This document shows, piece after piece, positions 2,181 to 41,371 of a stretch of 64,000 bases of DNA. The notes below the pieces were generated by a model that saw nothing but the letters and a program-made list of their open reading frames with translations, did not search any database and had not been told where the DNA came from. The position numbers and the translations under genes are program-made. The stretch covers positions 1 to 64,000 of the forward strand of contig JAFSFC010000054.1 in assembly GCA_017435425.1 (NCBI GenBank), read 5' to 3'. The DNA is from Ruminiclostridium sp. (lineage in GTDB: Bacteria > Bacillota > Clostridia > Oscillospirales > Oscillospiraceae). Every line of letters begins with the position of its first letter. Positions within the stretch are counted from its first letter, which is position 1.

Positions 2181-2615
2181 TTAGTTGTAGTTTAGAAATT
2201 CATCAAATGTTAAGGCGGTCTTTTCGAGTAGTTTCATTCTTCGTAGAAGGTCTTTATCATCAGTGACTAATATACAGTCTTCGTGTATTGCGGTTGCTGC
2301 AATTAACGCATCATTTCTATTTGCTTTGCTTTCCTTGAGGATGTGCCAATATGATGGTTCAGGAGAGAATGAAAAACTTGAGAAATTTAGATGGTCAAAT
2401 GTAAAAGGTGTTGGAACTAGAGTTGGTCTCAATTCGATTAGATTACGTAAATTGTTGTTGCGTATATCTTTTTTCTCGTCAGGGATAGCGAGGATTTCGG
2501 TAATTTGGATGGAGGAGACATAAAAATCATATTTTTGAAGGGTGTGCTTCAGAGTTGGGATATTATTTTGAAGTTTGTCGTATGCATTGGTATCAAACAT
2601 AATCTTTGTTTTCAT
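2181..2615 (-). CDS. PIN-domain ribonuclease
   Basis: A 144-residue PIN-domain protein. The acidic metal-binding residues of the fold are visible: D8 in FDTNAYD, E40, D102 in NDALIAAT, and D119/D120 in TDDKDL. PIN proteins are Mg/Mn-dependent RNases and often serve as toxins of toxin-antitoxin pairs. No classical small antitoxin gene precedes it. Its start overlaps the end of the Mrr-type gene by 23 bases and the next gene follows after 35 bases, so the three are probably one transcript. The function as a toxin is an inference. Confidence 0.8.
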   Translation of the reverse strand: MKTKIMFDTNAYDKLQNNIPTLKHTLQKYDFYVSSIQITEILAIPDEKKDIRNNNLRNLIELRPTLVPTPFTFDHLNFSSFSFSPEPSYWHILKESKANRNDALIAATAIHEDCILVTDDKDLLRRMKLLEKTALTFDEFLNYN

Positions 2616-3463
2616 TGCTACAAACCTTCCCTTCTGAAGTGCTTTTATCGATAAGATTTGATATAGTTAGTACATCGCTTAAAGTCAAAAGCTGTATAGG
2701 TTTCCCGAGTGTAAAGTCATATACACCTTTAGTAAATCCGTTCTTTGAGATTAGAATTGCTTTGGAAAAATTTCCGCTTATCATTGTCCCATAAAGATCT
2801 CTTGCTACAGCCGGACCTACAGGTTTGCTATGAGCTTTGCACTGTACTGCAATTCGTTCCGTGCCGTGTGTCAAAATAATGTCAATGCCACCGTCACCAC
2901 CGGCCTTACTGACGATTGTTGAATAACCTTGTTTTTGATAAAGAGAAGCAATGGCTTTTTCGAATTGATGGCCATCCATGCTATCCCAGTAAGTGAGAGA
3001 GTTCATTTTCTTCCAATATTCGTATGCTTTTACATGCTGGCTATATATGCTGAAGTTTTTTTCTAGTTCTGATTGTGGTGGTGAGAGATTTTCAATAAAT
3101 GAAAAAATAACGATTCCAAGAACGGGACCAATGGCAAGCATAACTCCAAGTGCATATAAAAAAGATTTCAGAACAGGTTCCCCGTTATGCTTATACAGTA
3201 ATGCTATAATTAAATAACATGCAAAAAGAGCCATACATCCGAGGAAGGCATATAAACGATCACATTTGTCTTTTCTTTTGGCGATTAGCTCTTCAACATT
3301 TTCTGGCAAATTAAAATCAGACAGTGAAGGGAGCTGTGTAACATATGGGACGCTTCCGTTAAATTCATTATATATCTTCTTTACAGAATAATATGGGTCA
3401 TTTATGCGACTTCGGATTTCTTTCTCGATGTTTATTTTTTTTCTTGTTTTGATAACTTCCCAT
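2593..3463 (-). CDS. membrane-anchored Mrr-type restriction nuclease, frameshifted near the start
   Basis: The in-frame part (stop at 2593) has two membrane helices followed by an Mrr catalytic domain with the GGDGGIDI and QCK motifs of PD-(D/E)xK nucleases. That frame stays open upstream to about 3510 but has no well-placed start: the TTG at 3309 lacks a ribosome site. The only good start is ATG 3461-3463, preceded by AAGGAG, and it is in a different frame that stops at 3398. The two frames join if one A is skipped in the run of eight A (3435-3442), giving 289 residues. Slippage, phase variation, a real lesion or a sequencing error are all possible. Confidence 0.7.
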
Positions 3464-18452: not shown

Positions 18453-20126
18453 TTACTTCCAGATGAGTAATGCATAATCTGCGAATAAATGTTGACGAGT
18501 TTCGATTTCGGCTGGAGTCCAAACAGAATTGTTTGCAATTTCTTTGTTTGGATCAATTTTGGAGGTTAAATATCTTGGTTTTTTAGTGTCGAAGTCTTTG
18601 TTAGAAATAGATCGATTGATGGGGCCACTCAAAAGAGCAAGATTACCTAATCGCCAAAGATATTCTTCGTGAATATCGTCGGAAACCATCCAAATGGAGT
18701 TATCCTCAGGCATAATATGTTCTATATGGACGTCAGTGTTGTCGATGTTTATTTCGTTAGTACGATCTAAGTGCTTATGAATCTTACGAAGGATGTATCG
18801 AATGGTTTCCTTGGTTGATTTTGATCCGCTCCAAATACAGAAAGCGTCATGAAACTCTTTGTCGCCAACCATTTCTGTTTTAATACGGTCAACAATTAGG
18901 TCAACTGTGTCTAATGTTCCGTCATATATTTCTTTTGCAATAGTCGCAAAAATAACCTCGGATTTGTTTGCAACTTTTCCGCAAATAGTGAAATTTCGAA
19001 AAATATATGTCTCGATAGACTGAATGACAGTTCGAATATCTGCCTCGGTAAAGGGGGTTGGGGCTTGGCGGATAGCAAGGACAATGGGGTAAAAAGAACT
19101 GGCTTTCAGTGTTTTTAATGCAACCAAGCTGTTGATCAAATAATTGTCTGAAAAATCAACATTGTCAGACGGAGTTGTTATGTCATGGTAACACTGAGCG
19201 TGGGCAGCAAGATTTTTCAGCAATTCTTTACTTGCTCTTGGACTAGAGATGCGTTTGCTAATACTGCGGTAAAGATCTTTTTCGCGAGTAAAGTTGTTGG
19301 TAGCATTCCAAAAGTGGCGAATGTACTTGGTGGGGTCTGCACGATCTAGGGCGTTGATCATAGAATTCCATTGAGATTGTGCTTGAGAGATATCCTTGGA
19401 TTGACTAAATACAAAGTTTTTTAAGAGATCGGCAGTTTCGAGATCCTTGCCTCTAGCATTCAATGTTTCAAAAATGACAAAGGCTTCGTCTAACTTTGTT
19501 GCTTCTAAGTATAGAACATTAAAACGCTTGGTGAAAGTGTTGTAGTATTCATCTAAAACATCTAGTTTGTCTTCATCATCAGATGCGGCGTCTAATTGAA
19601 TGTTTAGCTTCTCAAAAAAATACACGTATGCTTTTCGAAGTCGCTCGTGGGATTTTTTCTTTACTTTTTTTGTGTTGTCGGGGAGGCCTAGTTGGATTTT
19701 GTCTCTAAAATAATCACAATCTAATTCGCCTAAATGTAAGTGCAACTGATTGTCCGAAGGGGACAAGTAACGACCGATGTGGATGCTGGCAATATCAGAT
19801 TTTTTGTAATCAGCACGGGGCAAATTAGTGCTTTTATAAAGATCATCGTACAAGTGTTGCAGTGTCCTCATAAAGATTGTAGAAGTAATTGTGCGTTGCT
19901 GTCCATCGATTATATATTTTTTCTTGCTACTTTCATCATTATGGATAACGATCTGACCAAAGAAATGATCAGCACTGTCACTAGATTCCTTTGTAGTATT
20001 GAGATCATCCCAAAAATCACTTAATTCAGCATCTTCCCAGGAGTATTCCCGCTGATAATTGGGGATGTAATAAGTATTGCCGAGGAAAGTGTTCATGGTT
20101 TGAATAGCGCAGTTTTGTAAAGCCAT
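18453..20126 (-). CDS. DUF262/DUF1524 GmrSD-like protein
   Basis: A 557-residue protein with an N-terminal DUF262 domain (IPNYQREYSW near 21-30, DGQQR at 74-78) and a C-terminal DUF1524 HNH-like nuclease segment (HIEHIMPED). This is the architecture of GmrSD-type modification-dependent restriction enzymes and of several orphan anti-phage proteins. DUF262 uses nucleotide hydrolysis; the HNH part cleaves DNA. The gene is much more AT-rich than both neighbours, stands alone with its own promoter, and looks recently acquired. AGGAGG precedes the ATG. Confidence 0.85.
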   Translation of the reverse strand: MALQNCAIQTMNTFLGNTYYIPNYQREYSWEDAELSDFWDDLNTTKESSDSADHFFGQIVIHNDESSKKKYIIDGQQRTITSTIFMRTLQHLYDDLYKSTNLPRADYKKSDIASIHIGRYLSPSDNQLHLHLGELDCDYFRDKIQLGLPDNTKKVKKKSHERLRKAYVYFFEKLNIQLDAASDDEDKLDVLDEYYNTFTKRFNVLYLEATKLDEAFVIFETLNARGKDLETADLLKNFVFSQSKDISQAQSQWNSMINALDRADPTKYIRHFWNATNNFTREKDLYRSISKRISSPRASKELLKNLAAHAQCYHDITTPSDNVDFSDNYLINSLVALKTLKASSFYPIVLAIRQAPTPFTEADIRTVIQSIETYIFRNFTICGKVANKSEVIFATIAKEIYDGTLDTVDLIVDRIKTEMVGDKEFHDAFCIWSGSKSTKETIRYILRKIHKHLDRTNEINIDNTDVHIEHIMPEDNSIWMVSDDIHEEYLWRLGNLALLSGPINRSISNKDFDTKKPRYLTSKIDPNKEIANNSVWTPAEIETRQHLFADYALLIWK

Positions 20127-39583: not shown

Positions 39584-39611
39584 TTGCTTTTCGTTCTCAG
39601 TTTGATATAAT
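39584..39611 (+). promoter_or_regulatory. promoter of the cas12f gene
   Basis: TTGCTT and TATAAT with a 16-base spacer, 62 bases before the GTG start. A hairpin TATGCG/CGCATA lies between at about 39632-39649. Confidence 0.65.
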
Positions 39612-39673
39612 AACAGCATAAGGAACATGACGTATGCGTAGTGCGCATAGTCCAATGGCTGAGAGGTGATGTC

Positions 39674-40966
39674 GTGGGAACTGTTACAAAGGTTATGAAG
39701 TATGAGCTTCGCTATCTGGATGGAAGCGGCAGCTTCCATGATATGCAGAACTATGTTTGGCAGCTGCAAAGGCAGACAAGGGAAATCCTGAATCGCACCA
39801 TACAGGAAGCGACCCTTTGGGATTATAGAAGCAGAGAGCACTTTCTGGAAGCAGAGGAATACCTTGATGTTTATGCAGAAACTGGTTACAAGACACTTGA
39901 TGGCTACATATATAATCGCCTAAAAGGTTCCTATGGTGATTTTGCCGGAGCCAACCTGAACGCAACGTTGAGGAAGGCATGGAAGAAGTATAAAACTTCT
40001 AAAACAGAAGTTCTTCGGGGGACAATGTCCCTTCCTTCCTATAAGGGAGACCAGCCGTTGGTTCTGCACAATGGTTCTGTGAAACTTCAGGGAGATAGTC
40101 GGGATGCCGTTGTTGAATTGACGCTGTTTTCTAACACCTTCAAAAAGAGGGAGGGTATCAAAGGGAATCCAAGCTTTTCTTTGCTGGTTCGGGATAACAC
40201 ACAACGGTCAATTTATCAGAGTTTAATAGATGGCGTCTATAAGCTTGGCGAATGCCAGTTGGTGTATCAGAAGAAAAAGTGGTTTCTTCTCTTGACGTAC
40301 ACTTTTGAAGCCAGGCAGCATGAGGTGGACCCTGAAAAGATTCTGGGCGTTGATCTGGGAGAGGCCTATGCCATCTATGCAAGTTCCAAAGACAATTTCG
40401 GAAGCTTGAAAATTGAAGGTGGAGAGGTAACCGACTACGCAAAAGGTCTTGAGCGACGGAAACGAGCCCTCCAGCAGCAGGCCCGCTACTGTGGCGAAGG
40501 CCGTGTTGGCCATGGAACGAAAACCAGAGTAACCGAGGCGTACAAGGCAGAAGACCGCCTTGCAAACTTCCGCAAGACCATCAATCACAGGTACAGCAAG
40601 GCCTTGATTGACTATGCGGTAAAAAATGGGTATGGCACCATTCAGATGGAGGATCTCTCCGGCATTAAGGCGGATACAGGGTTTCCTAAGCGGCTGCAGC
40701 ATTGGACCTACTATGATTTGCAGAGCAAGATTGAGGCCAAAGCCAAAGAATATGGAATCCATGTGGTGAAGGTTGACCCCAGCTATACCTCCCAGCGATG
40801 TAGCAAGTGCGGGCATATTGATTCGCAAAATCGAAAGACCCAGGAACGTTTTCTGTGCGTCAGTTGTGGCTTCAGTTGTAATGCAGACTTCAATGCCTCT
40901 CAAAATCTCTCCATCAAGGGGATTGAAAAAATCATCAAAAAAACAAAAGGTGCGAAGGTGGAGTGA
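39674..40966 (+). CDS. cas12f: Cas12f1-type (type V-F) RNA-guided nuclease
   Basis: A 430-residue miniature Cas12. The RuvC triad is intact: D227 (ILGVDLGEA), E326 (TIQMEDLSG) and D405 (NADFNASQN). A zinc ribbon between the last two has C376, C379, C395 and C398. From memory the whole length resembles Cas12f1 proteins: an N-terminal QLQRQTR helix, LRGTMSLPSYK, TINHRYS, WTYYDLQ and YTSQRCS. Known Cas12f1 proteins of similar size act as dimers on dsDNA with a crRNA and tracrRNA. GTG 39674 follows GAGAGGTGAT; an ATG at 39695 is poorer. A CRISPR array lies 164 bases downstream and there is no TnpA. The alternative is a TnpB. Confidence 0.85.
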   Translation: MGTVTKVMKYELRYLDGSGSFHDMQNYVWQLQRQTREILNRTIQEATLWDYRSREHFLEAEEYLDVYAETGYKTLDGYIYNRLKGSYGDFAGANLNATLRKAWKKYKTSKTEVLRGTMSLPSYKGDQPLVLHNGSVKLQGDSRDAVVELTLFSNTFKKREGIKGNPSFSLLVRDNTQRSIYQSLIDGVYKLGECQLVYQKKKWFLLLTYTFEARQHEVDPEKILGVDLGEAYAIYASSKDNFGSLKIEGGEVTDYAKGLERRKRALQQQARYCGEGRVGHGTKTRVTEAYKAEDRLANFRKTINHRYSKALIDYAVKNGYGTIQMEDLSGIKADTGFPKRLQHWTYYDLQSKIEAKAKEYGIHVVKVDPSYTSQRCSKCGHIDSQNRKTQERFLCVSCGFSCNADFNASQNLSIKGIEKIIKKTKGAKVE

Positions 40967-40981
40967 CCAGACATACCTGGC

Positions 40982-41130
40982 CTCTTTCGCACTAGGTTCG
41001 GGGCGACTTCCCGTCCCAAAATCGAGAAAGTGGCTGTTAGCCCCGGATTATCCGGGCGGGCAATACACTCGAGAAGGTTAAGATGCACATAGTAATCCGT
41101 GCATGAGTCACTGTGCTGTGCATATTTGCC
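40982..41130 (+). ncRNA. candidate tracrRNA of the Cas12f system
   Basis: The region between cas12f and the array is non-coding and folds well by eye: CCCGGA/TCCGGG around TTA (41042-41056), an enclosing TCGAG/CTCGA pair (about 41022 and 41070) and ATGCAC/GTGCAT (41083-41104). The CGAGAAAGTG stretch resembles the conserved CGAGAAGTG part of known Cas12f tracrRNAs. The 3' end has an anti-repeat: AGTCAC and TTTGC/GTG segments can pair with GTGACT and GCAA/CAC of the repeat in the same order. Ends are approximate. Confidence 0.6.
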
Positions 41131-41292
41131 GTTGCAACTTACACGTGTACGTGACTTGAAGGGGAAGGAGTCACCAACATGACAAACAATAATGTAGTTG
41201 CAACTTACACGTGTACGTGACTTGAAGGTCCATTGACGAGGGCAACAAGGGCGAGCAGTTCAAGTTGCAACTTACACGTGTACGTGACTTGA
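41131..41292 (+). CRISPR. three-repeat CRISPR array (type V-F)
   Basis: Three 29-base repeats start at 41131, 41197 and 41264; all begin GTTGCAACTTACACG and end GTGACTTGA. The first two share further bases (AAGG). Repeats are identical over 29 bases and contain the palindrome TACACGTGTA. The spacers are unique, 37 and 38 bases. The last repeat loses the extra A at its end, which suggests it is the leader-distal one and that the array reads in the cas12f direction. No cas1, cas2 or cas4 is in the window. Confidence 0.92.
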
Positions 41293-41341
41293 TATGCTGT
41301 CAAGAAACGGCATATGTAATAAGAAACGAAATAGGCGTAAA

Positions 41342-41371
41342 AAAGCACCCGCTCAGCCGAGCGGGTGCTTT
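41342..41371. terminator. terminator shared by array and minus-strand operon
   Basis: AAAGCACCCGCTC pairs with GAGCGGGTGCTTT around four bases. The T tract is better on the minus strand, ending the 41377-44358 operon. Confidence 0.8.

What the first reader, a model, noticed from the sequence alone, without database searches (positions are those of the whole stretch)
39584..41292. Complete minimal type V-F CRISPR module with a Cas12f1-like nuclease
Seen in the sequence: a 430-residue protein with intact RuvC residues D227, E326 and D405 and a zinc ribbon, a following non-coding region, and three identical repeats with two unique spacers. From memory, the protein resembles Cas12f1 of Acidibacillus and Oscillibacter across its whole length, not only the RuvC core. 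The module has no adaptation genes and lies alone between housekeeping genes in a lower-GC patch. A small natural nuclease with all catalytic residues would be of practical and evolutionary interest. Whether this exact protein has been described cannot be told from sequence alone; CRISPR-linked TnpB-like intermediates have also been reported in related genera.
Basis: partly seen in the sequence, partly recalled or inferred. Interest (0 to 1): 0.9.

Follow-up and report, generated by a model that had tools for sequence, protein, structure and literature searches.

The report
Small Cas12f1 CRISPR gene, OsCas12f1 relative
This is a complete but very small stand-alone CRISPR system: one 430-residue DNA-cutting enzyme closely related to the already engineered OsCas12f1, with its guide-RNA gene and two stored invader sequences. 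It is a new member of a known kind, with the unusual layout that the tracrRNA runs straight into the first CRISPR repeat.

Summary
The window carries a 430-aa Cas12f1 gene (39674-40966), a tracrRNA scaffold (40994-41104), an anti-repeat (41105-41130) and a three-repeat, two-spacer CRISPR array (41131-41292). The protein is 63.5% identical to OsCas12f1 (PDB 9nzq) and groups with it at full support, inside a clade of array-linked nucleases and apart from array-less TnpB-like proteins. A covariance model built from other genomes finds the scaffold as the only hit in 64 kb (E=1e-15). The genome has one copy, no Cas1, no other copy of the repeat, and its only TnpA lies on another contig. A congener with yebC 96% identical lacks the module. 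LaTranC-type intermediates are only remotely similar. Two additions: (1) in this clade the anti-repeat directly abuts repeat 1, so the array transcript begins as a natural single-guide-like hairpin, and cognate anti-repeats and repeats co-vary (permutation P about 1e-4 or less); (2) a 41-bp inverted repeat (TGCGAA-N29-TTCGCA) sits just 5' of the scaffold here and in distant Cas12f1 loci. I found neither described in the papers read. Spacer targets were not found; RNA processing and cleavage are inferred.

The parts
39674..40966 (+). cas12f1, 430 aa, GTG start, stop included; RuvC D227/E326/D405 and four-Cys zinc ribbon
   Evidence: start matches the N-termini of L001 and OsCas12f1
40950..40992 (+). 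conserved inverted repeat GTGCGAA-N29-TTCGCAC across the stop codon, just 5' of the scaffold
   Evidence: only match in the window (0.06 expected by chance)
40994..41104 (+). tracrRNA scaffold (GGGCGAC stem, TCGAGA...ACTCGA long stem, ATGCAC...GTGCAT stem)
   Evidence: covariance model R1, built without the window and L001: 64 bits, E=1.1e-15 at 40994-41102, only hit in 64 kb; compensatory changes
41105..41130 (+). anti-repeat, ends at the base before repeat 1
   Evidence: cognate pairing test over 8-10 loci P 2e-5 to 8e-5
41131..41162 (+). CRISPR repeat 1 (32 nt); pairs in cis with the anti-repeat
41163..41196 (+). spacer 1 (34 nt)
   Evidence: no match elsewhere in own genome, none in viral contigs
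41197..41228 (+). CRISPR repeat 2 (32 nt)
41229..41263 (+). spacer 2 (35 nt)
   Evidence: no match in viral contigs
41264..41292 (+). terminal repeat, 29 nt kept, then diverged
41333..41371 (.). terminator-like hairpin between the array and the convergent neighbour gene
   Evidence: two sites on the - strand; number not above chance

Best explanation
A stand-alone type V-F1 CRISPR-Cas locus, orthologous to OsCas12f1. Shown from sequence: a full-length Cas12f1 with intact catalytic and zinc residues, a conserved tracrRNA scaffold with a cognate anti-repeat, and a two-spacer array on the same strand. Inferred from characterised orthologues: two Cas12f1 subunits bind one tracrRNA:crRNA guide, find a protospacer next to a T-rich 5' PAM (5'-TTN for enOsCas12f1), open an R-loop and cut both strands with RuvC, so the locus gives sequence-specific interference against mobile DNA. 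Inferred here: because the anti-repeat abuts repeat 1, the first guide folds in cis as a natural single-guide RNA, while spacer 2 needs the tracrRNA in trans or processing of the duplex. Spacers must come from an adaptation machinery supplied in trans, or the array is static: no Cas1 was found in the genome.
For: 63.5% identity to OsCas12f1 over 425 residues with all catalytic residues and the lid-side tryptophan kept; PDB hit 9e-185; Cas12f profile 1e-122; tree. Scaffold found blind by a model from other genomes; 31 scaffold matches (E up to 1) in 25 of 51 related loci searched, none in the array-less TnpB-like loci among them (L049-L073; L055, which matches, is a Cas12f1 locus with a repeat pair). 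Cognate anti-repeat:repeat pairing exceeds permuted pairings, P=2e-5 for all ten loci, 8e-5 for eight, 0.003 without the window and L001; controls 0.049 or above except the reversed anti-repeat, 0.014. Arrays lie beside most relatives of about 35% identity or more and beside very few of the more distant ones. OsCas12f1 structures and activity: PMC13186708, PMC10090079.
Against: No protospacer was found for either spacer, so past immunity is not shown. NCBIfam's inclusive TnpB model scores 186 bits against a cut-off of 100. For the window alone the anti-repeat duplex is not better than in shuffled sequence (P=0.25); the support is comparative. A fold of the window's non-coding stretch alone is only mildly stable (z=-1.64). 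No expression data.
Confidence: 0.93

Rival explanations
1. A transposon TnpB of an IS200/IS605-type element that happens to lie beside short repeats.
For: NCBIfam guided_TnpB above its cut-off; TnpB and Cas12f share the RuvC/zinc-ribbon fold; one TnpA exists in the genome.
Against: Single copy in the genome; TnpA on another contig; tree groups it with OsCas12f1 and array-linked relatives; array and cognate anti-repeat present in orthologues.
Confidence: 0.02
2. A transposon-CRISPR intermediate of the LaTranC kind rather than Cas12f1.
For: CRISPR array without adaptation genes; TnpB-like size; the guide scaffold follows the gene directly, as TnpB guide RNAs do.
Against: LaTranC matches only over residues 328-413 at E=0.002, against 9e-185 for OsCas12f1.
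Confidence: 0.02
3. A decaying or dormant CRISPR locus: intact enzyme, but a static two-spacer array kept for another role, such as regulation or exclusion of one element.
For: Only two spacers; no Cas1 in the genome; no targets found; L012 has diverged repeats and no clean array.
Against: Intact reading frame, catalytic residues and scaffold; repeats 1 and 2 identical; orthologues have longer arrays with different spacers (L001 five repeats, L086 at least eight).
Confidence: 0.2

Closest known systems
OsCas12f1 (Oscillibacter sp., 433 aa; PDB 9NZQ/9NZS/9NZT)
   Same: 63.5% identity over 425 residues, same catalytic, zinc and lid-side tryptophan positions; 100-supported clade with L001; characterised with a tracrRNA fused to crRNA as sgRNA
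   Different: Protein differs at 36% of positions; its native locus was not among the loci fetched, so tracrRNA-array spacing could not be compared
AsCas12f1 (Acidibacillus sulfuroxidans, 422 aa)
   Same: Full-length homology (5e-93), tracrRNA between gene and array (PMC8548392)
   Different: Separate branch of the tree; its nearest fetched relatives, L017, L018, L019 and L022, have a longer stretch between scaffold and array, while L020 in the same group is short
L001, uncultured Clostridiales RUG518
   Same: 65% identical protein, same layout, five repeats, anti-repeat abutting repeat 1
   Different: Not described in any paper read here; longer array
LaTranC (PDB 9jfo)
   Same: TnpB-derived RuvC nuclease with a CRISPR link (from memory; the paper is not held)
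   Different: Only remote similarity (E=0.002 over 86 residues)

Membership tests
Type V-F1 (Cas12f1) CRISPR-Cas | Full-length Cas12f1-like effector of about 400-550 aa | tested here: met
   PADLOC PDLC01699 1e-122 over 4-424; OsCas12f1 9e-185
Type V-F1 (Cas12f1) CRISPR-Cas | Intact RuvC triad and zinc ribbon | tested here: met
Type V-F1 (Cas12f1) CRISPR-Cas | Groups with characterised Cas12f1 in a tree | tested here: met
   100 support with OsCas12f1
Type V-F1 (Cas12f1) CRISPR-Cas | Adjacent CRISPR array | tested here: met
Type V-F1 (Cas12f1) CRISPR-Cas | tracrRNA with anti-repeat between gene and array | tested here: met
Type V-F1 (Cas12f1) CRISPR-Cas | Guide-dependent double-strand DNA cleavage next to a PAM, one dimer per guide | not testable with these tools
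   inferred from OsCas12f1 (PMC13186708, PMC10090079)
IS200/IS605 TnpB | Carried by a transposon with TnpA or element ends, often in several copies | tested here: not met
   single copy; the only Y1 transposase is on contig C71; element ends not searched
TranC (transposon-CRISPR intermediate) | Sequence kinship with LaTranC | tested here: not met
   E=0.002 over 86 residues only; no tree with LaTranC
Cas12f1 with its own adaptation module | cas1/cas2/cas4 at the locus or in the genome | tested here: not met
   no Cas1 (PF01867) in the genome; Cas2 and Cas4 not searched

The most novel reading that the evidence does not exclude
OsCas12f1-type loci encode a natural single-guide RNA: scaffold, anti-repeat and repeat 1 are one continuous hairpin RNA that guides Cas12f1 with spacer 1 without RNase III cleavage, as a TnpB guide RNA does, while later spacers work through tracrRNA in trans. 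The conserved TGCGAA-N29-TTCGCA element would be the 5' boundary or control site of this RNA. That would be a living mixture of the TnpB one-piece guide and the CRISPR two-piece guide.
Probability: 0.3. Interest if true: 0.62.

Novelty: new member of a known kind. Interest (0 to 1): 0.38.

Why it matters
The enzyme is a close relative of a nuclease already engineered for genome editing, so it is a ready candidate for that toolbox. The directly abutting anti-repeat and repeat bear on how one-piece TnpB guides became two-piece CRISPR guides: the native locus looks like an engineered sgRNA with its own tetraloop, and it can be tested with one RNA-sequencing experiment. The inverted repeat 5' of the scaffold is a conserved element for which I found no description in the papers read and no match in Rfam.

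Tried and rejected
Spacer targets: full spacers and their first 20 nt against viral contigs, blastn against phage records, and a codon-degenerate version of spacer 2: nothing convincing; the best phage blastn hits had E about 0.1-0.4. The first 20 nt of spacer 1 match nothing else in the own genome, so no self-target for it; spacer 2 was not searched there. Rfam: nothing relevant at the locus or in the loci with the inverted repeat. Promoter scan: no sigma-70-like match at the locus; a TATAAT at 39606-39611 is visible but its upstream hexamer is poor. Single-sequence fold and single-locus anti-repeat test: not significant, so the comparative test was used. RNAalifold on A2 does not recover the anti-repeat:repeat helix, probably because MAFFT misaligns that part. 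Structure prediction not run, since a 63.5% identical structure is solved.

Full report
What is there. The ORF at 39674-40966 codes for a 430-residue protein. D227, E326 and D405 and the cysteines C376, C379, C395 and C398 fall on the RuvC triad and zinc ribbon of OsCas12f1, and the lid-side tryptophan W345 of OsCas12f1 is W344 here. Two details change: the repeat is best read as 32 nt, with a diverged last copy as in L001, and the spacers are 34 and 35 nt. The 29-nt core occurs nowhere else in the genome.

What it is. PADLOC's Cas12f profile covers residues 4-424 at 1e-122. In the PDB the best match is OsCas12f1 (9nzq, 9e-185), then AsCas12f1 (5e-93); LaTranC appears only at E=0.002 over 86 residues. 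Identity to OsCas12f1 is 63.5% over 425 residues. In a tree of 64 proteins the window joins L001 and OsCas12f1 with full support; 20 TnpB-like proteins with no array found beside the gene form another part of the tree. An automated annotation may call this protein TnpB, since NCBIfam's guided_TnpB model passes its cut-off.

Surroundings. One copy in the genome, no Cas1, one TnpA on another contig. The locus lies between yebC and a convergent small gene beside a metallophosphatase. In the 400-genome family sample only this genome and one other had a match at 1e-30, and the nine congeners listed there had none. A congener with yebC 96% identical over 557 bases (G1844, L094) has a different 0.7-kb stretch with a small ORF at this place, so the site is variable. 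Such genes are rare: 4 of 394 genomes of the order and 2 of 391 of the class at 1e-70, own genome included.

The guide RNA. A covariance model built from nine scaffold sequences of other genomes, leaving out the window and L001, has a single hit in the 64-kb window, at 40994-41102, 64 bits, E=1.1e-15. The same model finds scaffolds in 25 of 51 related loci searched, and in none of the array-less TnpB-like ones of the outer part of the tree. The consensus fold shows compensatory changes in the first stem and the long stem.

The junction. The anti-repeat (41105-41130) ends at the base before repeat 1, and the two fold into one hairpin. The distance from the scaffold motif to repeat 1 is 40-54 nt in nine Clostridia loci of the OsCas12f1 side of the tree (WIN, L001, L014, L012, L086, L089, L015, L016, L090), 64-66 nt in L020 and L087, and 88-213 nt in others (L023, L010, L017, L030, L022, L019, L024, L036). 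In ten loci the cognate anti-repeat and repeat pair better than permuted ones: P=2e-5; with eight loci 8e-5; without the window and L001 0.003. Scaffold and stem controls gave 0.049 to 0.97, the reversed anti-repeat 0.014-0.07. The window alone would not show it (P=0.25). Six of these loci share the leader end TTTGC plus one base next to the repeat; where the repeat starts with GTTGCAA (or AAAGCAA in L012) the two can close a four-base loop, where engineered sgRNAs carry GAAA (sequences; design in PMC10090079). In the papers I could read (PMC10090079, PMC13186708, PMC8548392, PMC7229846, PMC12669027) I saw the gene-tracrRNA-array order but, in the passages read, no remark on this direct junction; supplements were not readable.

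The inverted repeat. TGCGAA-N29-TTCGCA lies at 40951-40991, across the stop codon, just before the scaffold; 0.06 such matches are expected in the window. Over the fetched loci, with spacing of 3-90 allowed, 16 pairs were found, 12 at 29 bases, three at 28 and one at 17; many lie just 5' of a scaffold, some elsewhere beside the gene. Inner bases are partly conserved too (AAGC..ACATA). Rfam has no match. Whether it acts as RNA hairpin or DNA site is open.

How it most likely works. By orthology, guide-loaded Cas12f1 dimers cut DNA next to a T-rich PAM (PMC13186708, PMC10090079). This is inferred. Spacer targets were not found, and the source of new spacers is unknown because no Cas1 was found in the genome.

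Verdict. Observation confirmed, interpretation supported, a new member of a known kind. The cis junction and the inverted repeat are the parts that deserve a bench test.

Noticed in passing
window 40950-40992; also L009, L010, L011, L012, L023, L030, L032, L042, L055, L086, L089: Inverted repeat TGCGAA-N28/29-TTCGCA with near-fixed spacing beside Cas12f1 genes, often just 5' of the tracrRNA scaffold, partly conserved inside, not in Rfam.
   Followed up: partly
L009, L015, L016, L018, L042, L055, L087: Second (in L009 third) copies of the scaffold, before and after the gene in L009, L018, L042, L055 and L087, both downstream of it in L015 and L016.
   Followed up: partly
L012:1297-1466 (G007): Scaffold runs into a single guide between two diverged repeats, no clean array: looks like a one-guide version.
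   Followed up: no
L094:557-1289: Congener with yebC 96% identical lacks the module; a small ORF of unknown function lies in the gap instead.
   Followed up: partly
window 18453-20126 (-): GmrSD-type protein (PADLOC HEC-06, 1e-150) in a 39% GC patch: another likely defence gene.
   Followed up: partly
window 2181-3309 (-): PIN-domain protein and Mrr-type nuclease domain protein side by side in a 37% GC patch.
   Followed up: partly
L031, 136 nt after the gene: Repeat pair spaced only 51 nt, leaving a spacer of about 20 nt.
   Followed up: no
IMG/VR loci L018-L046, L055: Many Cas12f1-like genes with arrays lie on contigs listed as viral; whether phage-borne or host DNA was not checked.
   Followed up: no
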